Origin: Chryseobacterium sp. SN22
GTDB taxonomy: Bacteria > Bacteroidota > Bacteroidia > Flavobacteriales > Weeksellaceae
Direction: 5' to 3'
Assembly (NCBI RefSeq): GCF_008329705.1
Contig: NZ_VTSX01000017.1
Coordinates: 1-64,000, forward strand
Length of the DNA: 64,000 nt
The notes beneath the pieces were generated by a model. It did not search any database, was not told the DNA's origin, and worked only from the letters and a program-made list of their open reading frames with translations. Below are positions 1,363-14,649 of the stretch, in pieces (position 1 is the first letter of the stretch; every line of letters starts with the position of its first letter). Made by a program: the position numbers and the translations under genes.

Positions 1363-1397
1363 ACGTCAAGTTTTGACGTTTCCCGCTTCTACCTTTG
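1363..1397 (+). promoter_or_regulatory. Palindromic operator-promoter module, copy 1
   Basis: The core ACGTCAAGTTTTGACG (arms ACGTCAA/TTGACGT around GTT) is followed after 11 bases by TACCTTTG, a Bacteroidota -7 element. Two other sites in the window have the same core pattern and the same spacing. The palindrome covers the position where the -33 element would sit, so a bound repressor would block RNA polymerase. Downstream is the small acidic gene, with a predicted leader of roughly 50 bases. Confidence 0.65.
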
Positions 1398-1454
1398 GAT
1401 TATGAAAACAAAGTAGCACAATAAACCTATCTGAAATTAATACCAAAGAAAAAC

Positions 1455-1625
1455 ATGGAAAAACCAAATCACCCATCCGATATATTCTTCAGTGAAGACA
1501 ATTACACAATTGAATGGATCGACATTGAAAATGCCGAATTAGACGCTGAAAGATATCTTAACGATATCGAAAACTTTTTCCGCCGGGACTTTGAAAACAA
1601 TATGCCTGAAGAAAAAGTTTCCTGA
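1455..1625 (+). CDS. Small acidic hypothetical protein (56 aa)
   Basis: This frame runs from ATG to TGA and encodes 56 residues starting MEKPNHPSDIFF and ending PEEKVS. It is strongly acidic (about 16 Asp/Glu against few Lys/Arg) and has no signal peptide or transmembrane segment. Its reality is supported by the palindromic promoter module ending about 57 bases upstream, which has no other gene to serve. I do not recognise a family. Small acidic proteins include DNA mimics and antitoxins, but nothing here shows such a role. It lies between the immunity-type genes and the WYL regulator, and shares a promoter design with that regulator. Confidence 0.5.
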   Translation: MEKPNHPSDIFFSEDNYTIEWIDIENAELDAERYLNDIENFFRRDFENNMPEEKVS

Positions 1626-1854
1626 TTAAGTTTCCTGCTCTGCAGCTGTCGGGACCTGATCACCATACCAATACTACTTTAAGGTCTCATCCTTTGAATT
1701 ACCATTTGCAAAATACCGACAGCCGGAGCAGGTTTTTAATGCAATATGTAAAGCCCGGTTATGGAAAACCGGAAGAGATTATAAACCGACATTATGATGT
1801 TCTATTTGCGGTAATACCGACTACCATTGTTAATTTTTTAAACAAAAATAAAAT
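1626..1854. other. Intergenic, no supported gene
   Basis: The stretch between the small acidic gene and the WYL promoter contains one 60-codon frame that runs into the palindromic promoter itself and has no protein-like features. I see no terminator hairpin or other signal. Confidence 0.4.
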
Positions 1855-1889
1855 ACGACAAGTTTTGTCGCATTAACCTCATATATTTG
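1855..1889 (+). promoter_or_regulatory. Palindromic operator-promoter module, copy 2
   Basis: The core ACGACAAGTTTTGTCG (arms CGACAA/TTGTCG around GTT) lies exactly 11 bases before TATATTTG. It sits about 80 bases upstream of the WYL-domain regulator gene, with no other gene between. This is the position expected for an autoregulatory operator. Copy 2 is the most perfect TAnnTTTG match of the three. Confidence 0.7.
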
Positions 1890-1967
1890 TGGTATAAACT
1901 TTTAGCAATGAAACGCCCGTGTTTCATCCTTATAGACAGACATACGTGGCAACATTAATATTTCAGC

Positions 1968-2888
1968 ATGAAAAAAGACTTTTACCTGACCAGATACGCA
2001 CTCATTATCAAGAGACTGGAAACTTCACCGGCTGCTTATCCGCAGCTGGAAGAGTATTTGCTTAATTCTTTTGAATTTCAGGATGCCGAGATCAAGAGCT
2101 ATTCCATCCGTACCCTGCAGCGGGACATCCGGGAGATTGCGAATCTTTTTAATCTTTCCATCCATAACAAGAAAAAAGGCGACAACCGGTATTATATCGA
2201 AAGCCGGCCGGTAATGGAAGTGGATGAGTACAACCAGAAACTGCTGGAATCTTTTCAGGTAAGCAACGCTTTAAACCTTCATCCCGATTTTTCAGACCTG
2301 ATTTTTTTCGAAACCCGAAAACCGACGGGCGTAGAACATTTTTACGATCTCTTCTTTGCCATCCGTAATAAAAGAATCGTCCTGTTTGAACATTACAACT
2401 ATAAAAACAAGGTAATGTCTTCCCGGAAAGTGCATCCTTTGGCATTAAAGGAATCCAAGGACCGTTGGTATTTGATCGCGGTAGACACCAAGGATAAGAT
2501 GCTGAAATCTTTCGGGCTCGACCGGATCAACTATCTCGATGTTTCGAAAAACAAGTTCAGGGAAAAATACAAATACAATTTCAGGGAACACTTTAAAAAC
2601 GCCTTCGGAGTCATGAACCTGGCTGAGCAGCATCCGCAGACTATTGTATTACGGTGCAGCAGGCATCAGGGAGAATATATCAGAAGTTTCCCCCTTCACC
2701 AGTCCCAGAAAGAAACCAGGGAAACACCGGAAGAGATCTTTTTTGAATTCTTTCTTCATCCGACGTACGACTTTATGCAGGAAATCCTTTCGTACGGAAA
2801 AGAAGTACAGGTCCTGGAACCTAAGATTTTAGTTGAGGAAATCCGCAGGCACCTGCAGGAATCCCTGAACCGTTACCTGGAGGATTAA
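1968..2888 (+). CDS. WYL-domain helix-turn-helix transcriptional regulator
   Basis: A 306-residue protein with an N-terminal DNA-binding region (about residues 1-75, containing SIRTLQRDIREI, the recognition-helix pattern of DeoR/WYL regulators). The WYL domain covers about residues 125-205 and includes IVLFEHYNYKN, HPLALKESKDRWYLIA and FGLDRI. A C-terminal WCX-type extension follows. WYL proteins sense small molecules or nucleic acid and often control stress, phage-defence or accessory genes. The gene has its own promoter with a palindrome over the -33 region, so it probably regulates itself. The same module before two other genes suggests they are co-regulated. Which ligand it senses cannot be told from sequence. 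Confidence 0.85.
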   Translation: MKKDFYLTRYALIIKRLETSPAAYPQLEEYLLNSFEFQDAEIKSYSIRTLQRDIREIANLFNLSIHNKKKGDNRYYIESRPVMEVDEYNQKLLESFQVSNALNLHPDFSDLIFFETRKPTGVEHFYDLFFAIRNKRIVLFEHYNYKNKVMSSRKVHPLALKESKDRWYLIAVDTKDKMLKSFGLDRINYLDVSKNKFREKYKYNFREHFKNAFGVMNLAEQHPQTIVLRCSRHQGEYIRSFPLHQSQKETRETPEEIFFEFFLHPTYDFMQEILSYGKEVQVLEPKILVEEIRRHLQESLNRYLED

Positions 2889-2937
2889 ACTGGTAAGATT
2901 GTGATTTTTTTGATTACATTTACATAAATATACCAAA

Positions 2938-3567
2938 GTGAAGCCTCTCCTTCTGTACTTGTTCTGCTTTATTTCATCGCTCTGTTTTGCACAGCAGACC
3001 GAGGAATTCAAACTGATTAAGAATTATTATAACCAGCACCGTTCCATGCTGGGAAAAGAATTCAGGAAAAAGTTCGATGCGGAAACCAATAATTTCCACA
3101 AAGCTTCCATTAAACAGGATTACCTGCTTTTTATGGAAAAGATGGACAGCATCGAAAATGTGGCACTTACCGGTGCCTTATTGAAAACAAAAAATCTGGA
3201 AGACCTGGATAAATTAAAATTACTCAATAAAACTTTACCTGCAGTGGTTTCACCGTCTCATTCCGTGGTCATCGATAAAGCCGCAGATTATCCCGGCGGA
3301 ATCAACGAGCTCCGCAAAGAGGTGGCAGATCTTTTTTATCTGGGAGGGGTATATTCCGACACCAAAACCGTAAAAGCCAATGTGGGATTTATTGTGGAAA
3401 GAGATGGCCGCGTTACCAACGTGCAGGCAGAAGGTGAGAATTTCACCTTTAACCGGCAGGCGGAAATTGCAGTTTATTCGGTTTCTCAAAAATTCTCTCC
3501 GGCCATCGTCGACGGGGATCCCGTCCGGTACCGGTTTAAGCTTCCTTTAACGATGAATATTGAATAG
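2938..3567 (+). CDS. Secreted protein with TonB C-terminal-like domain
   Basis: Starts with GTG. Residues 1-18 form a signal peptide (KPLLLYLFCFISSLCFA, cleavage before QQ). A helical, charged region follows, and the last 65 or so residues resemble the TonB C-terminal domain: VGFIVERDGRVTNVQ, then a helix and a closing strand YRFKLPLTM. Real TonB proteins are anchored by a transmembrane helix and have a proline-rich linker. This one has neither, so it is probably a free periplasmic protein rather than an energy transducer. tadA begins 2 bases after the stop, so the two genes are probably co-transcribed. The window contains two similar proteins elsewhere (50.9 and 53.4 kb). Confidence 0.65.
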   Translation: MKPLLLYLFCFISSLCFAQQTEEFKLIKNYYNQHRSMLGKEFRKKFDAETNNFHKASIKQDYLLFMEKMDSIENVALTGALLKTKNLEDLDKLKLLNKTLPAVVSPSHSVVIDKAADYPGGINELRKEVADLFYLGGVYSDTKTVKANVGFIVERDGRVTNVQAEGENFTFNRQAEIAVYSVSQKFSPAIVDGDPVRYRFKLPLTMNIE

Positions 3568-3569
3568 TT

Positions 3570-4004
3570 ATGGTATTTTCCGACGAATATTTTATGAAAA
3601 TGGCTTTTCAGGAAGCTGAATTAGCTTTTGAAAAAGATGAGGTCCCGATCGGCTGTGTCGTGATTTCCAACAACCGCGTGATTGCAAGAGCACATAATCT
3701 CACTGAAACTTTAAACGATGTCACGGCTCATGCCGAAATGCAGGCCATCACCTCAGCCGCTAATTTTTTGGGCGGTAAATATCTGAAGGACTGCACGATG
3801 TACGTAACTTTAGAGCCTTGTGTCATGTGTTCCGGGGCATTGGCCTGGGCACAGATTTCAAAGGTCGTTATCGGGGCAAGGGATGAGCAGCGGGGATTTA
3901 TCAGCAAGCACCTCAGCCTTCATCCGAAAACAGAGATCGTTACAGGAATTATGGAAAACGAATGTTCAGCAGTTGTTAAAGATTTTTTTAAATCGAGGAG
4001 ATAA
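3570..4004 (+). CDS. tadA: tRNA adenosine(34) deaminase TadA
   Basis: A 144-residue cytidine/deoxycytidylate deaminase-fold enzyme. It converts adenosine to inosine at the wobble position of tRNA-Arg(ACG). The catalytic motif HAE is at residues 54-56 (zinc-binding His54 and proton-shuttling Glu56), and PCVMC supplies the zinc ligands Cys84 and Cys87. DEVPIGCVV near residue 23 is the standard TadA substrate-pocket region, and the length is typical. It starts 2 bases after the TonB-like gene, which places it in a two-gene operon. Confidence 0.93.
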   Translation: MVFSDEYFMKMAFQEAELAFEKDEVPIGCVVISNNRVIARAHNLTETLNDVTAHAEMQAITSAANFLGGKYLKDCTMYVTLEPCVMCSGALAWAQISKVVIGARDEQRGFISKHLSLHPKTEIVTGIMENECSAVVKDFFKSRR

Positions 4005-4111
4005 TTATAATTTTTACCATTAATTTGTTTCATATTGACACCTATTATTTGATGTAATAATAAATATTAAAATTATTTTTAATAAAAATCCCTTTTTATT
4101 GATTTAATGAT

Positions 4112-4119
4112 TATATTTG
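4112..4119 (+). promoter_or_regulatory. TATATTTG promoter of the leader-peptide gene
   Basis: A TAnnTTTG -7 element lies 27 bases before the ATG of the small peptide gene. It overlaps the alternative upstream starts (TTG/ATG around 4117-4122), which would then lie at or before the transcription start, so the downstream ATG is preferred. Confidence 0.6.
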
Positions 4120-4146
4120 ATGAGATTTAAAACTAAAATAATCACT

Positions 4147-4332
4147 ATGAGAAAGTTATCAAGAAAAGAAACGGCAAAAATTAACGGCGGAATCAGACCA
4201 GACCAGTGTTTTTATGTAGATCCTAATACAGGGCAAAGAAAGGTTGGATGCAGAAACATGCCTTTCCAGGATGAAAACGGAACCTGGGTATATCCATTAA
4301 TTGAATGTGAGCCTTGCGGTGGAATCTTATAA
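4147..4332 (+). CDS. Bacteriocin-like peptide with double-glycine leader
   Basis: A 61-residue peptide. The first 15 residues (MRKLSRKETAKINGG) have the shape of a double-glycine leader as found in class II bacteriocins and the many 'bacteriocin-like' peptides of Chryseobacterium: a KLSR..L/I..INGG pattern ending at Gly14-Gly15. The core is 46 residues with four cysteines (21, 35, 54, 57), the last two in a CEPCGG motif. It has its own promoter and a strong terminator right after the stop, so it is a single-gene transcript. Leader peptides of this type are cut by C39-peptidase ABC transporters. None is encoded in this window. The product could be an antimicrobial, a signal, or a protein of unknown use, and the activity is not shown. 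Confidence 0.65.
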   Translation: MRKLSRKETAKINGGIRPDQCFYVDPNTGQRKVGCRNMPFQDENGTWVYPLIECEPCGGIL

Positions 4333-4335
4333 AAT

Positions 4336-4361
4336 AAAAAGCGGCCTTAAGGCCGCTTTTT
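4336..4361. terminator. Bidirectional terminator between peptide gene and coaX
   Basis: A perfect hairpin, AAAAAGCGGCC with loop TTAA and GGCCGCTTTTT, lies between two convergent genes and has A/T runs on both sides, so it can stop transcripts from either direction. It overlaps the stop codon of coaX by two bases. Confidence 0.85.
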
Positions 4362-5118
4362 ATTTATCTTTCCCCAAAAAATACAATCCTTTCAGAGTAT
4401 GAAGCCGGTCCATCACATGAATCTTATCGGTAAGCGGTTTGTAAACATGGGAAACGCCGCCTGTCGCTACCACAAAGCAATCATCATTTACTTCATCATT
4501 AATCCGGTTGATAAATCCTTCCACCATCCCGAGAAAACCATACACCATCCCGCTCTGCATACAGGTAACAGTATCCAGCCCCAGCACAGTTTTCGGTTTT
4601 ACGAGTTCGATGCTTGGAAGCTGGGCGGTCTGGCTGATCAGGGAATTTAAGGCCGTTACAATTCCCGGAGCGATAATCACGCCTAATGTTTCTCCATCTT
4701 CTGCAACACAGCTTGCCGTAAGTGCAGTCCCGAAATCCAGCACGATTTTTTTCCGGTCGGGATACATATTGTGTGCAGCCACGAGATTGGCATAAATATC
4801 CGTTCCCATCTGCTTGGATTTTGCCACAACGCCGGAGGGTGTCGTCCTGTCAACAATTACGGGATCAAGGTCATGAATTTTTTTAATCGCCGCATTCATT
4901 ACTTTGGTAAGCGGCGGAACTACAGAACCGATGATCACTTTATGGATCTCCTTCGGTTCGATTTTATACGTCTGATACAGCATCGACATCTGAACATACA
5001 ATTCATCCGGCGTTCTGTATGGTTTTGTATTGATTACCCAGGAAATATCACAATTGTCGCCGTTAAAGAGCCCGAACCGGATGTTGCTGTTGCCTATGTT
5101 GATTACGATTGAATTCAT
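4360..5118 (-). CDS. coaX: Type III pantothenate kinase
   Basis: A 252-residue ASKHA-fold kinase that phosphorylates pantothenate, the first step of coenzyme A synthesis. The N-terminal phosphate motif is INIGNSNIRFGLF (usual form DxGNT; here the acidic residue is Asn, reading INIGN). Further motifs are GSVVPPLT, the catalytic segment LDFGTALTASCV around residue 125, and ATGGVSHV near residue 220. The length is typical for CoaX. It is transcribed alone, convergent with the peptide gene. coaBC at 34-35 kb carries later steps of the same pathway. Confidence 0.9.
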   Translation of the reverse strand: MNSIVINIGNSNIRFGLFNGDNCDISWVINTKPYRTPDELYVQMSMLYQTYKIEPKEIHKVIIGSVVPPLTKVMNAAIKKIHDLDPVIVDRTTPSGVVAKSKQMGTDIYANLVAAHNMYPDRKKIVLDFGTALTASCVAEDGETLGVIIAPGIVTALNSLISQTAQLPSIELVKPKTVLGLDTVTCMQSGMVYGFLGMVEGFINRINDEVNDDCFVVATGGVSHVYKPLTDKIHVMDRLHTLKGLYFLGKDK

Positions 5119-5264
5119 GCATCTATTTTAAAAAGACCGAAATCTTATGTTCGTTTTGAAGCGTTAAAATTAATGATTTTAATAAAACGATACTTTATAC
5201 TTTTACCTTCTATTCAAAAACAATTATTTATATTTAAAAACTGAAATCATTTCAACTGCATCTC

Positions 5265-5867
5265 ATGAAAAAGCTGTTTCTCTTGTTTTTACTTTTTATC
5301 GGCCTGAATATACCTGCGCAGACGGCGGCGGCGGCAAAAGAAGTCTTTGAAAAAATTAAAAAGGAATCAAAGATCGACGGCAGCGACCAGACCGTATACA
5401 ATCTCCTTGACGAGTTTTATGCCAAAACCCTTCAGGCCGAAAATGACGAACTGAATACAGAAACCATAGAAAAAACACAAAAGTTCGTATCAGACCCGGA
5501 TACGAAGAACCTGCATATCCTGATGCTTTTTCTGATGTACCAACAGCATATCAGCCAGACGGCGGCCGTCGGGAAAACACCGGACGCCGGATTCCAAATG
5601 GCAACCATGAAACTGCTGGAAGATGAAATGAGAAATATCTACGGAAAAGTACCGGCTATCGTTTATATTTATAAGTATGAAGCTTTAGAAAGCGGAAATA
5701 AAAAAGAAGAAGCAAAGGCTGCAGCTTTACAGGGATTAAAAGAATATCCCGATTCGGTTCCTTTGAAGATGTATGTTTATTTAAGTACGAATGACGAAGC
5801 CCTAAAAAACGATCTCCTGAAAAACCATGCCAACCACTGGATGGTAAAACAATTTGGAATTAAGTAA
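5265..5867 (+). CDS. Secreted hypothetical protein with TPR-like C terminus
   Basis: A 200-residue protein with a clear signal peptide (MKKLFLLFLLFIGLNIPAQ, cleavage after AQ). The rest is helical and charged. The C-terminal part (KKEEAKAAALQGLKEYPDSV and following) resembles one tetratricopeptide hairpin. It is likely periplasmic. No enzyme motif is visible. It is a single gene followed by a strong terminator. I do not recognise a named family. Confidence 0.7.
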   Translation: MKKLFLLFLLFIGLNIPAQTAAAAKEVFEKIKKESKIDGSDQTVYNLLDEFYAKTLQAENDELNTETIEKTQKFVSDPDTKNLHILMLFLMYQQHISQTAAVGKTPDAGFQMATMKLLEDEMRNIYGKVPAIVYIYKYEALESGNKKEEAKAAALQGLKEYPDSVPLKMYVYLSTNDEALKNDLLKNHANHWMVKQFGIK

Positions 5868-5891
5868 GCTTTGAAAGAAAGTTATAAAAAT

Positions 5892-5921
5892 AATCCCCGG
5901 AGAAAAATTTCTCCGGGGATT
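5892..5921 (+). terminator. Terminator after the secreted protein gene
   Basis: Perfect 14-base arms AATCCCCGGAGAAA and TTTCTCCGGGGATT separated by two bases, 24 bases after the stop codon, followed by an AT-rich run. Confidence 0.85.
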
Positions 5922-6103
5922 TAAATATATTATCAGGATTAAATTAACGTAAACCAGACCGTATTTAATTTGTTTCCGGTCGCTTATTGAAATAGAAGAT
6001 TAGAATTCAAATGGGTAAATCAGGATTTTAAACAGATTTCTTATTTATATAATAACCAACGAGTCCATTTGATACTGCATACCTCTAAAAGTAGTATTGA
6101 CAA

Positions 6104-6137
6104 ATAAACTTCGGCATCCATCTTCCCTCTTCCAGCC
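6104..6137. repeat. Dispersed intergenic repeat, copy A
   Basis: Thirty-four bases that match 17214-17248 with one gap and two mismatches; both contain the shared segment CGGCATCCATC and end in CTTCCAGCC. Both copies lie just beyond the 3' end of a minus-strand gene. On the minus strand they read as a purine-rich GGCTGGAAG...GATGGATGCCG element, typical of small dispersed repeats in Chryseobacterium intergenic regions. Confidence 0.6.
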
Positions 6138-6172
6138 TGTTAATCCCGATTTTACTTCGGGTTCACGTTCAG

Positions 6173-8014
6173 TTACTTCACTTCAACGAAATTATCACCA
6201 GGATTCACATCCGCAAGCCTTTGGCTGATATCAATTCCTATCATCGACAGCTGGGACTTTGTGTACGGAACCGTAATGGTGTATTCCTTCTGTGTCCACG
6301 GCCAGTACGGCATCGTTTTGAAATCTCCGAAGGCATCTTTTGTTTTCCAGGTATGCGTCATGTTCATCGGGATCTGGTAATTCACGATCTTTTTATCGGC
6401 TGTCATGATGCTGAAATCGATCGGCATCGGAACCTGCCCGTTATTTACCAGAGTAATGGTGGTGGATTTGGCGTCATACTTTATATCCTTGATGCCGTAA
6501 TCGATGGTTTTGGTGGTATTGATCCAGTAATTCTGGAACCATTTCAGATCCATCCCCGAAACTTTCTGTGCAATATGCAGGAAATCCCTGTCAGAGGGAT
6601 GTTTCAGCGCCCATTGGTCATAATACTGCTTCAGGGTTTCGGCAAGATTCTGTTCACCCATAATATATCCCAATTCCACCAGGTACAACTCTCCTTTTAC
6701 ATACGAAGCATAGGTATAAGAAGTTCCGTTATCGTGGTGATCGCCCAGCCAGACCGCAGGCTCTTCAATTCCTTTCTTAACGAAATTCCGGTAGGCATTG
6801 ATCGAATTAAAAAACGGATTCGGAAGTTTTTGGGCCGGCGGAAACAGCTGGTTCATTACATACCCTTCCGCATAGCTGGTAAACCCCTCATCCATCCACG
6901 GGCGCATCGGCTCGTTGGTTGCCAGCATCTGCTGATACCAGGAATGAGCGCCTTCATGGGCCATTAGCCCCATCAATCCTTCAATATCTTTGGCTTCTCC
7001 TAAAATCATGGTACACATCCCATATTCCATTCCGCCGTCGCCGCCCTGAATAAAGGCATAGGTCGGATATACATATTTTCCGAAATGGGCGTTCATCAGC
7101 TGGTAATATTTCGTAAGGTAAGGCTGCGCCTCTTCCCATACTTTTGTCCTGTCATTATTCTGATACACCAGAAAAACTTTCGGGCCCTGCGGGACATCGA
7201 AGCTTTTCACAATATAATCCTTATCGGCGGCCCAGGCAAAATCAAGGATATTTTTCGCCGTCCATTTCCAGGTGGCTTTGTTTTTATCGGCTTTTATTTT
7301 GGCATTGGCGTCATAACCTTTTACGTCCGCAGGATTTTCAAGGATTCCGCCTGCTCCGATGACATAATCTTTATTGATTTTAATCGTAATGTCAAAATCA
7401 GAGAACGGGGCATGAAACTCCCTCCCGATATAATCGAAAGTTGCCCAACCATCGTAATCATATTCCGCAATCTTCGGATACCATTGGGTCATCGTCATAT
7501 CGACACCTTCCCGGTTGTTCCTTCCGCTTCGTCTGATCTGCTGCGGAATGACGGCATCCCACTCGAGGGTAAAGGTAGTAGATGAATTCGGCTTAACCGG
7601 TTCTGCCAGATATACTTTCATCACGGTTTCCTGGATTTCATATTTCAGGGTCTTTCCGTTCTGTTTGATCCAGTGGATGTTTTGTGCCCCTTCCTGGTCT
7701 TTAGGAATCGCAGCCAGCCTTGAAACCCCGTCTTTCTGCAATCTGGAATCTCCGTTTTTCCCCTGTCCGGCTACCCGCTGATCCATCATCGATCCAGGCT
7801 TAAAGGCATTCCAGTACAGATGGAAATATACCACCTCCAATTCATCCGGCGAGTTGTTTTTATAATCTAAAGTCTGTTTTCCTTCATAAGTAAATTTTTC
7901 AGCGTTGACATCAATATCCATCTTGTATTTCGCACTCTGCTGATAATAAGGACCCTGCTGGGCATGAAACTGTGAAATGATAAACGCAAACAGGATTGCA
8001 ACCGATTTTTTCAT
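6173..8014 (-). CDS. Secreted M1 family zinc metallopeptidase
   Basis: A 613-residue protein with a signal peptide (cleaved near FHAQ, residue 18). The zinc site is HEGAH at residues 353-357 with the third ligand Glu376 in WMDEGFTSYAE, giving the HExxH-18-E spacing of gluzincins. The exopeptidase signature is GGMEYGM at about 328, in place of GxMEN. Residues 30-280 form the N-terminal saddle domain. M1 enzymes remove N-terminal amino acids from peptides; this one is exported and probably feeds on extracellular or periplasmic peptides. It has no T9SS C-terminal sorting domain. The upstream TACCTTTA resembles a -7 element. Confidence 0.9.
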   Translation of the reverse strand: MKKSVAILFAFIISQFHAQQGPYYQQSAKYKMDIDVNAEKFTYEGKQTLDYKNNSPDELEVVYFHLYWNAFKPGSMMDQRVAGQGKNGDSRLQKDGVSRLAAIPKDQEGAQNIHWIKQNGKTLKYEIQETVMKVYLAEPVKPNSSTTFTLEWDAVIPQQIRRSGRNNREGVDMTMTQWYPKIAEYDYDGWATFDYIGREFHAPFSDFDITIKINKDYVIGAGGILENPADVKGYDANAKIKADKNKATWKWTAKNILDFAWAADKDYIVKSFDVPQGPKVFLVYQNNDRTKVWEEAQPYLTKYYQLMNAHFGKYVYPTYAFIQGGDGGMEYGMCTMILGEAKDIEGLMGLMAHEGAHSWYQQMLATNEPMRPWMDEGFTSYAEGYVMNQLFPPAQKLPNPFFNSINAYRNFVKKGIEEPAVWLGDHHDNGTSYTYASYVKGELYLVELGYIMGEQNLAETLKQYYDQWALKHPSDRDFLHIAQKVSGMDLKWFQNYWINTTKTIDYGIKDIKYDAKSTTITLVNNGQVPMPIDFSIMTADKKIVNYQIPMNMTHTWKTKDAFGDFKTMPYWPWTQKEYTITVPYTKSQLSMIGIDISQRLADVNPGDNFVEVK

Positions 8015-8218
8015 TTAAAATTTTATTTTTCTAAAGGTAAGTATTTAAAATAAAAACCTCAAATGTGAAGTTATTATTGAGGTTTTGGATTGGATTAACG
8101 TATTTAATTCTCTCGATGATATTGCAGATTTTAACTCAAACATCTGCTCAGTTCTCGATCTGCATCAGATATTTGAACACGGCTATCACAAATCTTTACA
8201 CTATTTAAACACAAATAA

Positions 8219-8265
8219 AATTCGTGTTATTTGTGAAGATATTCGTGTAATTTGTGTTTTAGCTC
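8219..8265. repeat. Degenerate tandem motif TTCGTGT-ATTTGTG
   Basis: Two imperfect units, ATTCGTGTTATTTGTGAAG and ATTCGTGTAATTTGTG, lie head to tail. A weaker echo (ATTCGTGAATG) is at about 8758 on the other side of the DinB-like gene. It accounts for a short open frame here that has no other support. It may be a small dispersed repeat. Confidence 0.35.
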
Positions 8266-8723
8266 AAAAGCTTCCTGATTAAAGTAATCTGCCCCAGATG
8301 ATAGTACGCATGCTCAATCATTCCGTCGATATTCCTTAAATAGGTTCCGTATTTTTCATCAACAAAAACTTCATTCATTTTAGCATCGGGCGTCTGCTCC
8401 AATAAAACAGCAAATCTCCCGGCATCATTCCAAAGTTTATTCAGTAATGATTCCCACTGCTCCTGCGATTCAACCGGCGGAAAATCAAAACTGTATTGAT
8501 CCCTGATCTCCAGATTGCCGCCTTCAAAAACCTGAATTAATCCGGCAATGTAATAATCGATATGAAAAGTCAGCATGGCAATGGTATTCAGCGAACCGAT
8601 TTGTGTTACCGCCTGCTCCCAAGTTACATCAGAAAGCTGATCTTTAAAATTGGTATTGGCGATCCAGACACCATCCAGCAATACTTCACGAAATCTTTTG
8701 GCTAATTGTAATACGGTACTCAT
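8259..8723 (-). CDS. DinB-like four-helix metal-binding protein
   Basis: A 154-residue soluble protein with the DinB/YfiT pattern: a His in the second helix (LTFHIDYY) and a C-terminal HAYYHLGQITLIRK motif that together form the three-His metal site. In Gram-positive bacteria this fold includes thiol-dependent transferases and damage-inducible proteins; the role in Bacteroidota is unknown. It is a single gene. The length matches the family. Confidence 0.75.
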   Translation of the reverse strand: MSTVLQLAKRFREVLLDGVWIANTNFKDQLSDVTWEQAVTQIGSLNTIAMLTFHIDYYIAGLIQVFEGGNLEIRDQYSFDFPPVESQEQWESLLNKLWNDAGRFAVLLEQTPDAKMNEVFVDEKYGTYLRNIDGMIEHAYYHLGQITLIRKLLS

Positions 8724-8870
8724 TGGTTGTAATTTTTTTAAAGATAATTATTTTTCACTATTCGTGAATGACGTATTCGGTTAAGATGGCAGACCAGTTT
8801 CTATAAAGGTCATGCATATTTTTATACGCAATCATCCGTGAAAATCTGTATAATCTGTAGGAAATAAAAA

Positions 8871-8903
8871 AATCCTTCAAGGTTTTAAAAACCTTGAAGG
8901 ATT
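8871..8903 (-). terminator. Terminator of the DUF6909 gene
   Basis: Perfect 16-base arms AATCCTTCAAGGTTTT and AAAACCTTGAAGGATT, 22 bases beyond the stop of the minus-strand gene. On that strand a T run follows, so it fits a rho-independent terminator. Confidence 0.85.
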
Positions 8904-8925
8904 ATAAATATTTTCAGACTTTAAA

Positions 8926-10611
8926 TTAAGCGAAAAGCTCTTTCTTTGCGCTGCGTAAAATCTTCTCAAGAATTTTTAAGGTAATCAGGTAAGTCGGTTT
9001 CACACCGGTTAATCCCAATCCTCCCGATGAAAGCGTGCTTCCGGTTTCCAGCGGATTATCCGAAGCGTAATAAGCGTACATCACAAACAGATCCGGGGTA
9101 ATGTGGTGTCTGATCTTTGAGGCCACCTGAATGGCTTTCTGGTAGTGGGCACCTTCCATTTCAAGACCGATCGCCTTCCATGAAGTGTTCATAAAATACG
9201 AAAGGATATCCCTATTTTGCAGCGAGGTCCCCAGAACGGTAATCATCGGCCCTTCAAAAGCAAGCAGTTCGTCATCTTTAAAATCTTCCAGTTTCAAAGC
9301 ATTTTCAAAAGGATAGTTATCGGCCGTACCTTCAAAAATATGGGAGGTCGGAATCATGATATCGCCTTTTCCGCCGGCCAGGATTCCCGCTTTCCCCATG
9401 ATCGATACCGATTTTACTTTCATCATATATACTTCCCCTTTATGTTCGAAAGGCCTCAGCAATTCGTCCATTACTTCAAAAGCCTGCTCCCCGAATGCAT
9501 AATCGAAAACCATGATCACATCGTCTCCGCCGTATTTGATATCGCTGAAAGGCGTATTTTTAAGATTAGTCTTGCTCAGATCGATGATCTGGACGTCGAT
9601 ATTGCTTCCGCTCTTATCATTGATGTAGATCATTCCTTCATCCAGCGCATATTTGGACACCTTTTCGCGAAGATCCTTCTTATCGGAGATTTCGCCGTAC
9701 AGCTTATAATCTACTTCTTTGGAATCTTTTTTCTTCAGGGCATCATTCCCGTACAGCATGTTTTTTACCGAGTGCATATTGGCGGAGATGATATGCAATG
9801 GACGCATGTGAAGATCGTTTTCATACAGAACCTCCTTCACTTTATGGGCCCACTTTTCACCGAAATAGTGATGCCCCACCCTTTCTCTGAGGATCGAGCT
9901 GAAATGAATTTCCCGCTCCCTGGTCTGCTTGGCATCTTCCAGGCTTACTTTCGCCAGGTTGTAGATGATCTTAAACAGACGGTCCGGATTATCGTCGTCC
10001 CCAAAAGTATTATATGCCCTTAACGTTTCATCAAACGTCCTTCCTATTAAAGAAGACAGATGGATCAGGGCTACCTCCTTTTCTTTTCTGCTGAATTTCT
10101 TTTCGCCTTTTACCACTTCTTCGATGATCTTGAAAGCGCGGGTCGGTTTCCAGTTTTCGTCCTGGGCAAAAGCCAGGTTGCGGATCTTGTCCGCTTCTAT
10201 AAATAAAAAGGTAAGGTGGGTAAGAATGTCATAAATCTCGGAACGGCCCAAAAGAACTTCAATATTCATCTGGTGCTCGTCGATCCGGTAGCAGTTTCTT
10301 CTTCTCTTTTTGGGAACAATCGGTTCGAAACTTCCTTTATCAAACCCTTCATCCGAGGTAAGATGAATAAAAGCACATTCTTCAATGCCTTCCGGAAGCC
10401 TGTCCAGCACATACATCAGCCCGTCCAGCTCCAGCTTGCTCGGAATATTCATGCTTCCGTAAATCTCAGGATTAATGGTCTTCAACAAACTTCTGATCGT
10501 CTCCCCCGAAACACCGGCAGGTTTAAAAAAACCTCTGTAAAAGAGGTGTCTCATAGAAATATACAATCTTTCAATTGCTTCCGTTGTTTCTCTTGCTCTA
10601 GAATTTGTCAT
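8926..10611 (-). CDS. DUF6909 family protein with nucleoside-phosphorylase-like C terminus
   Basis: A 561-residue cytoplasmic protein from the chosen ATG (MTNSRARETTEAIERLY). I match it to the flavobacterial family called DUF6909 from memory. The N-terminal 250 residues are helical and of unknown function. The C-terminal third carries motifs reminiscent of purine nucleoside phosphorylase/AMP nucleosidase: GKGDIMIPTSHIFEG, VLGTSLQNRD and, most telling, GLEMEGAHYQKA (the ExEGA ribose-binding motif). This suggests a nucleoside- or nucleotide-cleaving domain fused to a novel N-terminal domain, but this is inference. The longer upstream start is rejected because the promoter TATATTTG lies between it and the chosen ATG. 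Confidence 0.7.
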   Translation of the reverse strand: MTNSRARETTEAIERLYISMRHLFYRGFFKPAGVSGETIRSLLKTINPEIYGSMNIPSKLELDGLMYVLDRLPEGIEECAFIHLTSDEGFDKGSFEPIVPKKRRRNCYRIDEHQMNIEVLLGRSEIYDILTHLTFLFIEADKIRNLAFAQDENWKPTRAFKIIEEVVKGEKKFSRKEKEVALIHLSSLIGRTFDETLRAYNTFGDDDNPDRLFKIIYNLAKVSLEDAKQTREREIHFSSILRERVGHHYFGEKWAHKVKEVLYENDLHMRPLHIISANMHSVKNMLYGNDALKKKDSKEVDYKLYGEISDKKDLREKVSKYALDEGMIYINDKSGSNIDVQIIDLSKTNLKNTPFSDIKYGGDDVIMVFDYAFGEQAFEVMDELLRPFEHKGEVYMMKVKSVSIMGKAGILAGGKGDIMIPTSHIFEGTADNYPFENALKLEDFKDDELLAFEGPMITVLGTSLQNRDILSYFMNTSWKAIGLEMEGAHYQKAIQVASKIRHHITPDLFVMYAYYASDNPLETGSTLSSGGLGLTGVKPTYLITLKILEKILRSAKKELFA

Positions 10612-10626
10612 AAAATAAATTTCACA

Positions 10627-10634
10627 CAAATATA
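10627..10634 (-). promoter_or_regulatory. TATATTTG promoter of the DUF6909 gene
   Basis: On the minus strand TATATTTG lies 15 bases before the ATG at 10611. It decides the start, since the longer frame would begin upstream of it. Confidence 0.6.
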
Positions 10635-10665
10635 CAAAATCTCCGCCCAACTTTATTTTAAGTAA

Positions 10666-11117
10666 CTTTTAATAAGTCGCTTAACATAATATATAAGGTA
10701 TGGAACGCAATCCTTTATTTGTTCCGGCAATTAAGTATTCCAATCTTTTAAGCTCCATTACCGCTTTTATCATTCATGACGACCATCCGGCCATTTTCAG
10801 GAGCCGGGAACCTGCTTTCCGCTGTATCTTTTTCGCCGCACCAAAGGCCTTCCGGAAAAAGGATGCCGCTGCAATCAGGGCTAAGAGTATAATCCTTTAT
10901 AAAAAAGCGGACTTTGGTTGCATCAGCCACCGCTTTTATCCTTACATTAAGCAGATATTTACATAAGATTCCTTAAATTTAAATGAAATCGAACTTAAAA
11001 TTCAAAATCATCCCTATAACCCCTCTCAAAATTTCAAATCTTTGTTTAATTTTTTGTTAAATTTAAACCAACCCCTTAAATTTTTAGGGTAAAAATATTT
11101 TTGATTTAATTTTTTCG
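10666..11117. other. Divergent intergenic region, no supported gene
   Basis: About 450 bases separate the divergent DUF6909 and glnN genes. Overlapping frames of 88 codons (+) and 60 codons (-) have unlikely composition and no promoter, so I do not call them. The last 130 bases become very AT-rich and lead into the glnN promoter. Confidence 0.4.
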
Positions 11118-11125
11118 TAAATTTG
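11118..11125 (+). promoter_or_regulatory. TAAATTTG promoter of glnN
   Basis: A TAnnTTTG element followed by GC lies 22 bases before the glnN ATG. The sequence upstream is T-rich with a TTG 14 bases before it. The leader is very short. Confidence 0.6.
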
Positions 11126-11147
11126 CCACGTAAAAATCAAACCTAAT

Positions 11148-13343
11148 ATGTCAACTTTAAGATTCAAAGCGTTAGAAACTTTACCATTCAAGGACTTTAG
11201 AAGAGATAATTCCGTTGAAGTTCCCGTAAAATTGTCAGAATTATTCTGCCAGAATGTTTTCTCAGAAGAGACGATGAGAGAATATTTAACGAAAGAAGCC
11301 TTCACTTCTATTATGGATGCAGTGAAAAAAGGAACCAAAATCCAGAGACACATTGCAGACCAGGTAGCCGTAGCGATGAAAGACTGGGCGATGAGCAAAG
11401 GGGTAACCCACTACACGCACTGGTTTCAGCCGCTTACAGGAAGCACTGCCGAAAAGCACGATTCGTTCTTCACCCCGATTGAAGGAGGAAGAGCCATCGA
11501 AAGATTCAGCGGAAACCTGTTGATCCAGCAGGAGCCGGATGCATCTTCTTTCCCGAATGGAGGAATCAGAAACACTTTTGAAGCAAGAGGTTACACGGCT
11601 TGGGATCCTACTTCCCCGGCGTTTATCATGGGGACCACTTTATGCATCCCCTCGATTTTTATTTCTTATACCGGAGAAACATTGGATTACAAGGCCCCTC
11701 TTTTAAGAGCATTGAATGCCGTAGACGAGGCTGCTACCAACGTGATGCAGTATTTCGATAAAAACGTAACCAAAGTAACACCTACGTTAGGCTGGGAACA
11801 GGAATATTTCCTGGTTGATTCCGCATTATACCAATCCCGCCCGGACCTTGTATTAACAGGTAAGACCTTATTGGGACATTCCCCTGCCAAAGGACAGCAG
11901 TTAGACGACCACTATTTCGGTTCTATTCCTACAAGGGTAATGAACTTCATGAAAGAGCTGGAAATCGAATGCATGAAACTCGGAATCCCGGTGACAACAA
12001 GACACAACGAGGTGGCGCCGAACCAGTTTGAGCTGGCCCCGATGTTTGAGGAAGTAAACGTTGCCGTAGACCACAACTCTTTGTTAATGGATGTTATGGC
12101 AAGAATCGCCCACAGACACCATTTCCATATTCTTTTCCACGAAAAACCGTTTGCTGGCGTAAACGGAAGCGGAAAGCACAACAACTGGTCTTTAGCGACC
12201 GATACCGGGGAAAACCTCTTAAGTCCGGGTAAAAACCCTAAGAAAAACTTACAGTTCTTAACCTTCTTCGTAAACACCATCAAAGCGGTTCACGAATATG
12301 CTGATCTTTTAAGAGCAAGTATTGCTTCTGCAAGCAATGACCACCGATTGGGAGCCAACGAAGCGCCGCCTGCCATTATTTCCGTATTTATCGGAAGCCA
12401 GCTGTTCAGCGTATTGGAAGAGCTTGAAAAAGTAACCAGCGGAAAACTTTCCCCTGAAGAAAAAACAGAATTAAAACTGAATGTCGTAGGAAAAATCCCT
12501 GAAATCTTATTGGACAACACCGATAGAAACAGAACTTCTCCGTTCGCATTTACCGGAAATAAATTCGAGATCAGAGCCGTAGGTTCTTCTGCCAACTGTG
12601 CAGAATCCATGACGGTAATGAATACCATCGCAGCGAAACAGTTAAGCGACTTCAAAAAAGAAGTGGATGCTTTAATTGAAACCGGTCTTAAAAAAGACGA
12701 AGCGATCTTCAATATATTAAGAGAATACATCAAGCAGTGCAAGAGCATTATGTTTGAAGGAGACGGATATTCCGACGACTGGGCGAAAGAAGCTGAGAAA
12801 AGAGGATTGAACAATCTCAAAACAACTCCTGAAGCCCTGAAGCAGGAAATGGATGAAAAATTCCTGGCGCTTTATGAAGAGATGGGAATTTTCACGCACC
12901 GTGAAGTTGAGGCCAGAAACGAAATCAAATTAGAAAAATATTCTACCGTTATCGATATTGAGGCAAGAGTATTGAGTGATATCGCAAGAAATCACATCAT
13001 TCCTTCCGCGCTGAACTATCAGAACAGACTGATCGAGAACGTAAAAGGCCTTAAAGAAATCTTCGGAGAAAACGAATTCAGGTCTTTAGCGAAAGAACAG
13101 ATGAGCCTGATTACAAATATCTCTGAAAACGTATCTAAAATCAAATTAGGCGTTGAAGATCTGATCAAAGCCAGAGAAGCAGCAAAAGCCGTAACGGAAA
13201 GCCAGAAGCAGGCAGAAGAGTACTGTAATACGGTAAAACCTTTATTTGATGTGATCAGAGAAGCTTCTGATGATCTTGAAATGATGGTGGATGACGAGCT
13301 TTGGCCGATGACGAAATACAGAGAAATGTTATTTACAAAGTAA
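11148..13343 (+). CDS. glnN: Glutamine synthetase type III
   Basis: A 731-residue enzyme of the large GSIII class, which joins ammonium to glutamate using ATP. It shows the GSIII N-terminal region, the active-site segments GWEQEYFLVD (about residue 215), TRHNEVAPNQFELAP (about 280), NGSGKHNNWS (about 338, the ATP-loop region) and GANEAPPAI, plus a long C-terminal helical extension. The length is typical for GlnN of Bacteroidota, where it is often the main nitrogen-assimilation enzyme. It is a single gene with its own promoter and terminator. Confidence 0.95.
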   Translation: MSTLRFKALETLPFKDFRRDNSVEVPVKLSELFCQNVFSEETMREYLTKEAFTSIMDAVKKGTKIQRHIADQVAVAMKDWAMSKGVTHYTHWFQPLTGSTAEKHDSFFTPIEGGRAIERFSGNLLIQQEPDASSFPNGGIRNTFEARGYTAWDPTSPAFIMGTTLCIPSIFISYTGETLDYKAPLLRALNAVDEAATNVMQYFDKNVTKVTPTLGWEQEYFLVDSALYQSRPDLVLTGKTLLGHSPAKGQQLDDHYFGSIPTRVMNFMKELEIECMKLGIPVTTRHNEVAPNQFELAPMFEEVNVAVDHNSLLMDVMARIAHRHHFHILFHEKPFAGVNGSGKHNNWSLATDTGENLLSPGKNPKKNLQFLTFFVNTIKAVHEYADLLRASIASASNDHRLGANEAPPAIISVFIGSQLFSVLEELEKVTSGKLSPEEKTELKLNVVGKIPEILLDNTDRNRTSPFAFTGNKFEIRAVGSSANCAESMTVMNTIAAKQLSDFKKEVDALIETGLKKDEAIFNILREYIKQCKSIMFEGDGYSDDWAKEAEKRGLNNLKTTPEALKQEMDEKFLALYEEMGIFTHREVEARNEIKLEKYSTVIDIEARVLSDIARNHIIPSALNYQNRLIENVKGLKEIFGENEFRSLAKEQMSLITNISENVSKIKLGVEDLIKAREAAKAVTESQKQAEEYCNTVKPLFDVIREASDDLEMMVDDELWPMTKYREMLFTK

Positions 13344-13367
13344 CATTTGTAAAGTTCCATATTAGTG

Positions 13368-13394
13368 AAACTCTCCGGCTCCACCGGGGAGTTT
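13368..13394 (+). terminator. Terminator of glnN
   Basis: Arms AAACTCTCCGG and CCGGGGAGTTT (one T-G wobble) with loop CTCCA, followed by a T run, 24 bases after the glnN stop. Confidence 0.85.
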
Positions 13395-13815
13395 TTTTAT
13401 GGTTTGAAATTAATTCCGTACAAAGAATGTTTTTATGATTTATCGACGATGTTAAGATTCATCCAAAATCAATTCACCAACTTCAAATAGTAGAATTAAA
13501 TTATTTAATACAGCTTGTAATCAATTGTTTATTAACAGATATTATAAGCCCTTTTTTTGAAATAAACCTTTTGCAAAGTCTTATTCCAACGAATCTGAGG
13601 AAAATTTTGTTAAAGAATCTTAATAAAAAAAACCGCAGGCCCACCTAAAACAGGCGGCTGCGGTTTATTTTTCTTTAACATACTTAAAAAATATGTTAAA
13701 ATGTGTTAAATAAAGAACCTGACAATTGTCATATCAAGGTGCTTTTATACGGATTCTATATTTTTGTATTGCTTTTGAAAATATAATATCCTTTTAACAC
13801 GGTAATCAAATATAT
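13395..13815. other. Long intergenic region with an orphan hairpin
   Basis: About 420 bases lie between glnN and the NlpC/P60 gene. No open frame is supported. The first 230 bases are AT-rich and plain. An orphan GC-rich terminator-like hairpin follows at about 13630-13668. A TATTTTTG element at 13759-13766, 50 bases before the NlpC/P60 ATG, is a candidate promoter for that gene. Confidence 0.5.
13630..13668. terminator. Orphan bidirectional terminator-like hairpin
   Basis: Outer arms AAACCGCA and TGCGGTTT enclose a partly paired GC-rich middle. An eight-base A run on the left and a T-rich tail on the right would allow termination in both directions. It lies 240 bases after the glnN terminator and has no gene directly in front of it, so it may end an unannotated small RNA. 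Confidence 0.55.
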
Positions 13816-14529
13816 ATGAAGAAAAGAGTTTTGTTTTATCTAGTTGCTTTCGTTTCTACAGTATCGTTACAATCTTGTGTTACCAACTACGTCGTTTCAA
13901 AACCAGCAACTTACGCAAAAGAGTACAAAACAGATGCCAAACTAGCTTCTTTCGAAACAAACAAAATGGAACAGGATAAGCAGAAACTTATCAACTCCTT
14001 CCTGGCGGAAAAAGCAGCTACCCTGGTAAAGGCAAGAAATTCTATTAAAAATTCCGAGATTGCAAAAGCAATCAAACACAATACCACCATCGACAACATT
14101 TTAACGGAAGCTCAGACCTATATCGGTACGCCTTACCGTTACGGAGGAATGACAAGAAACGGAATCGACTGTTCAGCTTTCGTTCTTTCCGTTTTCGGAG
14201 CTGCTGCAGGACTCAGTTTACCAAGAGTTGCTGCGTCCCAATCTGAAGAAGGAGAAAAAATAGACAAAGAAAACCTTCAGAAAGGAGATCTTATTTTCTT
14301 TTCTCACGGAAGAAGAATTTCACACGTAGGTATCGTGGAAAGTGTAGATGAAAACGGGGAAATAAAATTCATTCATGCCGCGACATCGAAAGGGGTCATG
14401 ATTTCTTCACTAAATGATTCGTACTGGGGACCAAAATACAGGTTCGGAAAAAGAATCATCAACGAGAACGGGGAAGCCTATAACAACCTGGCAACAATGA
14501 CTCCCGCTTCCAACGGAACAAGTTTTTAA
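13816..14529 (+). CDS. NlpC/P60 (C40) peptidase lipoprotein
   Basis: A 237-residue cell-wall hydrolase. The signal peptide ends in a lipobox LQSC with Cys21 as the lipidation site, so it is membrane-anchored in the periplasm. A helical linker precedes the NlpC/P60 domain (about residues 90-215), with catalytic Cys119 in NGIDCSAFV, His170 in RISHVGIV and the third polar residue His187 in FIHAAT. The family cleaves the D-Glu-mDAP bond or similar bonds in peptidoglycan stem peptides. It is a single gene followed by a hairpin terminator. Confidence 0.9.
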   Translation: MKKRVLFYLVAFVSTVSLQSCVTNYVVSKPATYAKEYKTDAKLASFETNKMEQDKQKLINSFLAEKAATLVKARNSIKNSEIAKAIKHNTTIDNILTEAQTYIGTPYRYGGMTRNGIDCSAFVLSVFGAAAGLSLPRVAASQSEEGEKIDKENLQKGDLIFFSHGRRISHVGIVESVDENGEIKFIHAATSKGVMISSLNDSYWGPKYRFGKRIINENGEAYNNLATMTPASNGTSF

Positions 14530-14554
14530 TTTTAAATAATTGATTTAAATAATG

Positions 14555-14577
14555 AAACCATCAGATGCTGATGGTTT
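14555..14577 (+). terminator. Terminator of the NlpC/P60 gene
   Basis: Arms AAACCATCAG and CTGATGGTTT around ATG, followed by a T run, 25 bases after the stop. Confidence 0.85.
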
Positions 14578-14614
14578 TTTTATTTTTAATAATAATCGTA
14601 AGTTTTAATATAAT

Positions 14615-14649
14615 ACGACGAGTTTTGACGTACCACCCTATTACTTTTG
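14615..14649 (+). promoter_or_regulatory. Palindromic operator-promoter module, copy 3
   Basis: The core ACGACGAGTTTTGACG is followed after exactly 11 bases by TACTTTTG. The palindrome is less perfect than in the two copies near the WYL gene (six of eight arm positions pair). It overlaps the longer possible start of the beta-helix gene, so translation should begin at the ATG 52 bases further on. Confidence 0.6.

What the first reader, a model, noticed from the sequence alone, without database searches (positions are those of the whole stretch)
1363..14649. A 35-base palindromic operator-promoter module occurs three times with identical spacing
At 1363, 1855 and 14615 the sequence reads ACGnCnAGTTTTGnCG, then exactly 11 bases, then TAnnTTTG. 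The three spacers are unrelated in sequence, so the equal length is not due to recent duplication. The symmetric core covers the -33 region, where a repressor would block polymerase. One copy is before a WYL regulator gene, one before a small acidic gene, and one before an AT-rich tailspike-like gene 12 kb away. This looks like a small regulon with a defined operator.
Basis: partly seen in the sequence, partly recalled or inferred. Interest (0 to 1): 0.75.

Follow-up and report, generated by a model that had tools for sequence, protein, structure and literature searches.

The report
A WYL-regulator promoter switch for toxins
The repeated motif is very probably the docking site of a DNA-binding switch protein encoded beside it, which appears to turn on a scattered set of cell-lysis, phage-tail-like and toxin-like genes in Chryseobacterium and its relatives, using almost the same DNA code as a DNA-damage regulator in a distant bacterium.

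Summary
The 35-base module lies at 1363, 1855 and 14615, each with exactly 11 bases between dyad and TAnnTTTG. The genome holds 27 matches at up to 2 mismatches, against 3 for the reversed control. In 59 same-genus genomes, 149 of the 150 listed matches (255 in all) have an 11-base gap although 5-20 was allowed. The link to the WYL gene holds. Of 90 family genomes, 18 carry a close WYL ortholog; 17 of these have 4-26 sites and one has 2; the other 72 have 0-3. Of 27 orthologs examined, 26 have the site before their own gene. The repressor reading is probably wrong: the dyad CGWC-N7-GWCG has the half-site and spacing of Caulobacter DriD (ATACGAC-N7-GTCGTAT), a homodimeric WYL activator whose sites overlap -35 at a fixed distance from -10 (PMC12340889). 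The predicted WYL structure is nearest DriD. Sites precede the WYL gene, an endolysin-like M15 peptidase, a patatin phospholipase, tail-fibre-like and toxin-domain proteins and a conserved 232-aa protein. Binding, activation, the ssDNA signal and lysis release are inferred, not shown.

The parts
1364..1378 (+). Dyad operator CGTCAAGTTTTGACG, copy 1
1390..1397 (+). -7 box TACCTTTG, 11 bp after the dyad
1455..1625 (+). 56-aa acidic ORF, member of a family found first behind 15 of 106 sites with an assigned ORF; function unknown
1856..1870 (+). Dyad operator CGACAAGTTTTGTCG, copy 2; with its flanks matches 13 of the 14 specified bases of the DriD consensus
1882..1889 (+). -7 box TATATTTG, 11 bp after the dyad
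1968..2888 (+). wHTH-WYL-WCX regulator (306 aa), the proposed activator; its own promoter region carries copy 2
14616..14630 (+). Dyad operator CGACGAGTTTTGACG, copy 3; 12 of the 14 specified DriD bases
14642..14649 (+). -7 box TACTTTTG, 11 bp after the dyad
14701..16473 (+). 590-aa tailspike-like (pectate-lyase fold) gene behind copy 3

Best explanation
The module is the binding site and promoter of a DriD-type, homodimeric WYL transcription activator, the 306-aa protein at 1968-2888. The dimer binds CGWC-N7-GWCG, which takes the place of the -33 element. At a fixed 11-bp distance from TAnnTTTG it holds sigma-A RNA polymerase on promoters that otherwise lack a good upstream element. It controls its own gene and roughly 20-26 promoters: an M15 endolysin-like peptidase, a patatin-like phospholipase, tail-fibre/tailspike-like proteins with very large partner proteins, toxin-domain proteins, RHS-like operons, a 51-61-aa acidic protein and a conserved 232-aa protein. 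Shown here, by sequence alone: the motif, its spacing, its distribution, its link to the WYL gene, the operator likeness to DriD and the list of genes behind the sites. Inferred: binding, dimerisation, activation rather than repression, activation by single-stranded DNA or DNA damage, and the purpose (a lysis-and-release weapon or self-sacrifice programme).
For: (1) Linkage to the WYL gene: all 59 genus genomes sampled have both an 84-100% identical WYL and the motif. In 90 family genomes, 17 of 18 with a WYL of at least 65% identity have 4-26 sites and the 18th has 2; the 72 others have 0-3 (Fisher 1.9e-17, not corrected for kinship). Genera g9, g11 and g23 contain both states and agree. (2) Site before its own gene: 26 of 27 orthologs whose flanks I held, and 7 of 12 homologs at 34-39% identity, have it within 150 bp of the start of the match, at up to 4 mismatches. 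(3) Operator likeness to DriD: scanned with DriD's published consensus alone, the best two of about 64,000 + strand windows are copies 2 and 3 (13 and 12 of 14); copy 1 scores 10, as eight other windows do. (4) Geometry as for DriD: overlaps -35, constant distance to the -10 box. (5) No TTG at 17-21 bp: 0 of 11 against 10 of 51. (6) Structure: DriD is first in Foldseek (1.0e-12; PafBC 1.8e-12, BrxR 8.0e-9, CapW 3.7e-8) and in VIA-align (Z 17.7 over 200 residues, rmsd 3.5). (7) The same gene families lie behind the motif in other genera.
Against: No binding, expression or transcript-start data exist for these genes. G105 keeps an intact close WYL ortholog (303 aa) yet has 2 sites. G061 has the WYL gene but no site directly before it (best 8 mismatches). 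Distant WYL paralogs carry nearly the same site, so cross-talk is possible. The -33 control is small, and TTG position in ordinary promoters here is only weakly marked: its commonest gap in the 51 other boxes is 14 (6 of 51), the motif's own value. Structure does not by itself separate activator from repressor: the top two VIA-align rows are DriD C-domains, and full-length DriD chains score 16.8 and 15.4 (crystals) but 13.5 and 13.4 (cryo-EM), the latter tied with BrxR 13.5, PafBC 13.1 and CapW 13.0; by sequence profile PafBC (8.5e-22) beats DriD (1e-13). [quoted passage not shown] I saw no recJ, dnaG or other repair gene as a direct target, so the DNA-damage signal rests on homology and on a nearby Y-family polymerase.
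Confidence: 0.77

Rival explanations
1. The WYL protein is a repressor that sits on the -35 region and blocks RNA polymerase, released by a ligand.
For: Known WYL repressors are homodimers on palindromes (PMC9122588, PMC9122601, passages). A dyad covering about -38 to -24 could also block polymerase, and a site before the regulator's own gene is common in repressors. Full-length DriD cryo-EM chains and BrxR are tied in VIA-align.
Against: CapW sites overlap the -10 and the BrxR site lies downstream of the promoter. A repressor does not need one exact distance, yet 149 of 150 listed matches have N11. The promoters lack a TTG at the -33 distance (0 of 11). The operator sequence is close to that of an activator.
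Confidence: 0.15
2. The motif is the recognition site of an alternative (ECF-type) sigma factor, and the WYL gene is just one of its targets.
For: Fixed spacing between two blocks is typical of sigma-factor promoters, and many unlinked genes share the motif.
Against: The downstream block is the primary-sigma box TAnnTTTG, while the ECF-type promoters of Flavobacterium psychrophilum have a CGT box in the -10 region (PMC9723704, passages). The upstream block is a dyad, which suits a dimer. It tracks the WYL gene and resembles the DriD operator.
Confidence: 0.05
3. A mobile promoter cassette or repeat spread by duplication, with no dedicated regulator.
For: Some copies are local tandem duplicates (C25 three copies, L121 five, L161 four) and several loci are island-like.
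Against: Spacers and flanks differ between most copies while dyad, gap and -7 box are kept. Only 8 of 395 Bacteroidota genomes have the exact form, all in one family, and within the family it follows the WYL gene.
Confidence: 0.03

Closest known systems
[quoted passage not shown]
   Same: wHTH-WYL-WCX protein, first in both fold comparisons; operator half-site CGAC/GTCG with N7, inside ATACGAC-N7-GTCGTAT; site overlaps the -35 region at one distance from the -10 box; poor -35 element.
   Different: The downstream box is the Bacteroidota TAnnTTTG; the third dyad base is A or T; genes behind the sites are lysis, tail-like and toxin-like instead of didA, bapE, recJ and dnaG; the site faces its own gene; only 16-20% identity in the structural alignments; ssDNA activation untested.
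PafBC (mycobacteria), WYL activator by sigma adaptation
   Same: WYL activator working on a -26 promoter motif with sigma-A polymerase, activated by ssDNA (PMC11804915, passages); profile match E 8.5e-22.
   Different: Heterodimer on a non-palindromic motif (PMC6789036, passages); here one gene and a dyad.
CapW and BrxR, WYL repressors of CBASS and BREX
   Same: Homodimeric wHTH-WYL proteins on palindromes.
   Different: CapW sites overlap the -10, BrxR's lies downstream of the promoter, and both control local defence genes; here -35 sites, genome-wide.
SiwR (Mycobacterium smegmatis)
   Same: A WYL activator controlling adjacent genes under genotoxic stress (title and start of abstract in the listings; not opened).
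   Different: Its operator was not compared.

Membership tests
DriD-type homodimeric WYL activator | wHTH-WYL-WCX domain architecture | tested here: met
   Pfam WYL 1.1e-12 and WCX 7.5e-10; AF2 model pLDDT 81, pTM 0.54, with an N-terminal helical domain; first PDB matches are DriD, aligned over nearly the whole length
DriD-type homodimeric WYL activator | About 20-bp pseudopalindrome CGAC-N7-GTCG | tested here: met
   in many sites the third base is T (CGTC/GACG)
DriD-type homodimeric WYL activator | Site overlaps -35 at a constant distance from the -10 box, in promoters with a poor -35 | tested here: met
   By sequence only, transcript starts not mapped: N11 in 149 of 150 listed matches of 255; no TTG at gap 17-21 in 11 of 11; 255 of 330 exact 15-mers in 59 genomes have TAnnTTTG at a gap of 5-20
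DriD-type homodimeric WYL activator | Activates transcription; activated by ssDNA | not testable with these tools
   needs expression and binding assays
DriD-type homodimeric WYL activator | DNA-damage and repair targets | tested here: inconclusive
   No recJ or dnaG recognised among the genes behind the sites examined, without an exhaustive search; Y-family polymerase genes lie near the M15 site in 4 genomes but are not shown to be targets
PafBC | Heterodimer of two WYL proteins on a non-palindromic motif | tested here: not met
   One full-length close homolog (84% or more) in each of 59 genus genomes, the other full-length hits being much less alike; the site is a dyad. The heterodimer itself cannot be tested
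CapW/BrxR repressors | Operator overlaps or follows the -10, beside a CBASS or BREX operon | tested here: not met
   The dyad ends 11 bp before TAnnTTTG and is spread over the genome. Of 10 proteins scanned with PADLOC, the patatin hits phospholipase-effector models and the WYL protein hits WYL models and a Cas3c model; the other 8 hit none. A search for CBASS or BREX genes proper was not done
Alternative (ECF) sigma promoter | Non-sigma-A -10 box with CGT | tested here: not met
   -7 box is TAnnTTTG; the ECF-type box in F. psychrophilum is CGT

The most novel reading that the evidence does not exclude
Chryseobacterium, Elizabethkingia and relatives carry a dedicated 'lyse and release' programme under a DriD-type WYL switch. 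DNA damage (ssDNA) activates WYL, which turns on an endolysin-like peptidase and a phospholipase that open the cell, together with tail-fibre-like proteins and polymorphic toxins, several of which lack an obvious secretion signal (by eye), that are thereby released. This would be the Bacteroidota counterpart of SOS-controlled colicins and pyocins, but run by a WYL protein, and would show that one WYL operator and promoter geometry is kept between Alphaproteobacteria and Bacteroidota.
Probability: 0.35. Interest if true: 0.82.

Novelty: new variant of a known kind. Interest (0 to 1): 0.62.

Why it matters
It gives a Bacteroidota WYL regulator a precise operator, a promoter geometry and a target list. 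The same dyad at the same promoter position in Caulobacter and here suggests that DriD-like activation is an old and general scheme, testable with two short DNA probes. If the regulon is a damage-triggered lysis and toxin programme, it would be a new route to bacteriocin-like killing in soil and opportunistic flavobacteria. It also points to a shared control for several families without known function (the 232-aa protein, the 51-61-aa acidic protein, the 1,200-1,300-aa partners of fibre-like proteins).

Tried and rejected
Repressor reading: weakened by fixed spacing, absence of a TTG at the -33 distance and operator likeness to an activator; not excluded. Alternative sigma factor: the -7 box is of sigma-A type. 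Chance: reversed-pattern controls give 3 against 27 in this genome and 2 against 239 in 90 family genomes. Contractile injection system as direct target: two sheath-like matches under the family's cut-off lie on C61, but the 40 kb fetched there has a single 3-mismatch match, inside a gene. Phage-defence system: PADLOC hit just WYL (with Cas3c) and phospholipase-effector models among 10 proteins. The 232-aa protein stayed unidentified: no Pfam hit, no PHROG hit, one weak PDB profile match at E 0.064 that I do not trust, and an AF2 model too weak to search (pLDDT 65). PafBC as the closest parallel was my first idea (note; the motif letters written there were recalled, not read); DriD fits better because its site is a dyad. 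I first noted G105's WYL gene as broken; one search shows it is intact, so G105 counts as an exception.

Print search, open-access text only: WYL, Bacteroidetes, operator and palindrom 2 papers; 'WYL domain' with Chryseobacterium 0; a looser five-term search with WYL, Bacteroid and regulon, 15 of 31 listed; 'WYL domain' with Flavobacteri 2; WYL with Elizabethkingia 2. By title and start of abstract in these listings none describes this regulon; I did not open the papers. Papers seen: PMC12340889 outline, sections 7, 11 and 12 (first part of two) and passages; PMC11804915, PMC6789036, PMC9723704, PMC9122588, PMC9122601 and PMC10957082 passages; others as listings.

Limits: one of the 20 exact dyads counted for the own genome was not in the stretches fetched (19 seen). 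In one search, 8 of 114 sites had no ORF assigned, several short singletons are doubtful, and one cluster of 6 short ORFs is probably a wrong-frame reading of the acidic family; I draw no target from these. Flanks of the WYL gene were examined for 39 of the homologs found (27 close, 12 distant), not for all. Of the 27 own sites I leave C13:100205 (chance), C2:13879 (doubtful ORF) and C37:321 (contig end) without a target.
Full report
OBSERVATION. Shuffles of the window reach three matches at up to 2 mismatches in 11 of 100 cases, so the strength lies in the three being exact and sharing the box. The wider dyad CGWC-N7-GWCG occurs only at these three places in the 64-kb window. In the whole genome (4.46 Mb, 66 contigs) CGNCNANTTTTGNCG-N11-TANNTTTG has 27 matches at up to 2 mismatches, 16 of them exact, against 3 for the reversed pattern. 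One of the 27, the 2-mismatch site at C13:100205, has no convincing gene behind it and I take it as chance.

SPACING. With a gap of 5 to 20 bases allowed, 59 of 59 same-genus genomes have matches, 255 in all. The tool listed 150 of the 255; 149 have a gap of 11 and one has 10. The same 59 genomes hold 330 exact 15-mers irrespective of a -7 box, so 255 of 330 are followed by TAnnTTTG. In the own genome 15 of the 19 dyads I could inspect have TAnnTTTG at N11, and the other four have a box one base off consensus at the same distance.

PROMOTER GEOMETRY. TAnnTTTG lies at -12 to -5 in Flavobacterium psychrophilum (PMC9723704, passages), so the dyad spans about -38 to -24. Of 62 intergenic TAnnTTTG boxes within 200 bp of an ORF of 120 aa or more in the sequence at hand, 11 belong to the motif. 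TTG at 17-21 bp upstream occurs in 0 of these 11 and in 10 of 51 others. The control is small; in the 51 others the commonest single gap is 14 (6 of 51), which is also the gap inside the motif. An AT-rich tract precedes the dyad.

WHICH REGULATOR. The WYL gene at 1968-2888 is present at 84-100% identity in 59 of 59 genus genomes. In 90 genomes of the family (33 genera), 18 have a WYL of at least 65% identity. Motif counts at up to 2 mismatches in these are 26, 18, 16, 15, 14, 13 (own genus), 15, 14, 11, 10 (g23), 11, 10, 6 (g9), 6, 6 (g11), 7 (g4), 4 (g20) and 2 (G105, g26). The other 72 have 0-3, 50 of them 0. The reversed control gives 2 matches in all 90 genomes, against 239. Within g9, g11 and g23 some species have the close ortholog and many sites, and the others have no close ortholog and 0-2 sites. 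G105 is an exception: its WYL gene is intact. Fisher's test gives 1.9e-17 but ignores kinship. Among the 27 close orthologs whose flanks I held, 26 have the site 51-120 bp before the start at up to 4 mismatches; next-best matches there mostly have 7-9. Of 12 homologs at 34-39% identity, 7 also have it, within 150 bp of the start of the match. In 395 Bacteroidota genomes the form CGWC-N3-TTTTGWCG-N11-TAnnTTTG occurs in 8, all in this family. The Prevotella site lies 92 bp before a WYL gene of 34% identity.

WHAT IT WORKS LIKE. DriD of Caulobacter binds ATACGAC-N7-GTCGTAT (PMC12340889, introduction passage). The sites here read AYRCGWC-N7-GWCGY (102 distinct sites; letters fixed in the search pattern cannot count as conserved there). 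Scanned with the DriD consensus alone, the + strand of the window has its best two scores at 1853 (13 of 14) and 14613 (12 of 14); copy 1 scores 10, no more than eight other windows. DriD sites overlap the -35 element, lie at the same distance from -10 in its promoters, and serve promoters with poor -35 elements (section 11). The AF2 model of the WYL protein (pLDDT 81, pTM 0.54) is nearest DriD in Foldseek (E 1.0e-12, with PafBC close at 1.8e-12; BrxR 8.0e-9, CapW 3.7e-8). In VIA-align DriD leads with Z 17.7 (C-terminal part, 200 residues, rmsd 3.5); full-length DriD crystals score 16.8 and 15.4, DriD cryo-EM chains 13.5 and 13.4, BrxR 13.5, PafBC 13.1, CapW 13.0. A profile search of PDB sequences gives PafBC 8.5e-22 and DriD 1e-13. 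CapW binds over the -10 and BrxR downstream of the promoter, as repressors (PMC9122588, PMC9122601, passages). So I read the WYL protein as a DriD-type activator. Shown: sequence, position and linkage. Inferred: binding, activation and the signal.

REGULON. In the own genome the sites precede: acidic 51-56-aa ORFs (C8:1364, C15:14203), the WYL gene, a tailspike-like gene (C8:14616), a 685-aa protein with an ADP-ribosyltransferase domain (C8:90303; PF03496 7.8e-10), an M15 peptidase (PHROG endolysin 2.4e-30) and a patatin phospholipase (2e-26) on C15, fibre-like proteins on C15 and C44, large proteins of 1270 aa (second in its operon) and 1323 aa, a 728-aa gene with three tandem promoters (C25), a 2032-aa DUF6603 protein about 400 bp on (C34), an 869-aa gene (C5), a 448-aa gene (C22), 528-aa and 110-aa ORFs (C43) and the 232-aa gene (C65). 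Behind a variant dyad (C2, C13, C62, C37) stand 536-578-aa genes, with a T9SS sorting tail in the one scanned, followed by RHS-like genes; the one of these scanned hits RHS_repeat at 0.00084, under the cut-off. The C15 operon continues into a 724-aa protein with a metallopeptidase-toxin domain (1.3e-14). Of 114 exact sites from the 80 listed loci plus the own genome, 106 had an ORF assigned; the largest first-gene clusters are the 232-aa family (25 sites, 24 of them 20-21 bp after the box), the acidic family (15), the 728-aa family (13, mostly tandem promoters), fibre-like (8), M15 (8), DUF2589-like (5; name and likeness by eye), the T9SS-tailed family (4), WYL (3) and patatin (3). In G045, G003, G025 and G027 the WYL gene, M15, patatin and fibre-like genes form one island with several sites; G031 has WYL, M15 and patatin together; in G014 acidic genes adjoin WYL. 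A G045 gene of that island has a weak EndoU-nuclease match (0.00016, under the cut-off). M15, patatin or fibre-like genes stand behind the motif in Elizabethkingia and in genera g9, g11 and g20. A peptidoglycan hydrolase and a phospholipase under one switch with phage-tail-like and toxin-like proteins suggest lysis and release. This is an inference, and no toxic or lytic activity was tested.

SIGNAL. DriD and PafBC are activated by ssDNA. Here the only hint is a Y-family polymerase near the M15 site in four genomes (G000, G031, G045, G027; in G031 a partial ORF), with an XRE-S24 (LexA-like) gene and a DNA polymerase III alpha-like gene on C15. I give DNA damage as signal about even odds.

VERDICT. 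The finding is real and reaches far beyond the window. The regulator is very probably the WYL protein, acting more likely as activator than repressor. It is a new variant of a known kind (DriD-type regulation) with a target set that I did not find in print.

Noticed in passing
L031 (G000:C25:38176, 38279, 38378); L121; L161: The whole operator-promoter is repeated head to tail 3, 5 and 4 times at about 98-103 bp intervals before genes of one cluster (728-730 aa in L031 and L121), giving a tandem-promoter array.
   Followed up: partly
L034:5509-6204 (G000:C65:83508-84203): A 232-aa protein with the site 20-21 bp before its start in 24 loci, the commonest target, with no Pfam hit and no credible PDB match.
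   Followed up: partly
L226:11397-19999 and L227 (G000:C61, about 95-118 kb): A cluster with sheath-like genes (two matches to Phage_sheath_1 under its cut-off) and, by eye, tube-like genes, perhaps an extracellular contractile injection system; no convincing WYL site there.
   Followed up: partly
L029:12576-17639 (G000:C15:16575-21638): XRE-S24 (LexA-like) regulator, Y-family polymerase and DNA polymerase III alpha-like gene near the M15 site; a Y-family polymerase ORF also adjoins the M15 site in G031 (partial), G045 and G027.
   Followed up: partly
window 198-569: A SUKH-type immunity-like gene near the WYL gene; in G027 (L241:2708-3157) a 33% identical relative lies between WYL and the fibre operon, so it may be a leftover of a toxin island.
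   Followed up: no
L035, L039, L040, L033 (G000:C2:9577, C62:170932, C13:97938, C37:11903): RHS-like operons behind a variant dyad CGTCATG(T/C)TTTGTCG, all led by a similar 536-578-aa gene, with a T9SS sorting tail in the one scanned; possibly a subset with different affinity.
   Followed up: no
L098, L100, L101, L103, L105, L106, L108: Distant WYL homologs (36-37% identity) carry slightly different versions of the same site before their own genes, which would allow specificity changes to be traced.
   Followed up: no
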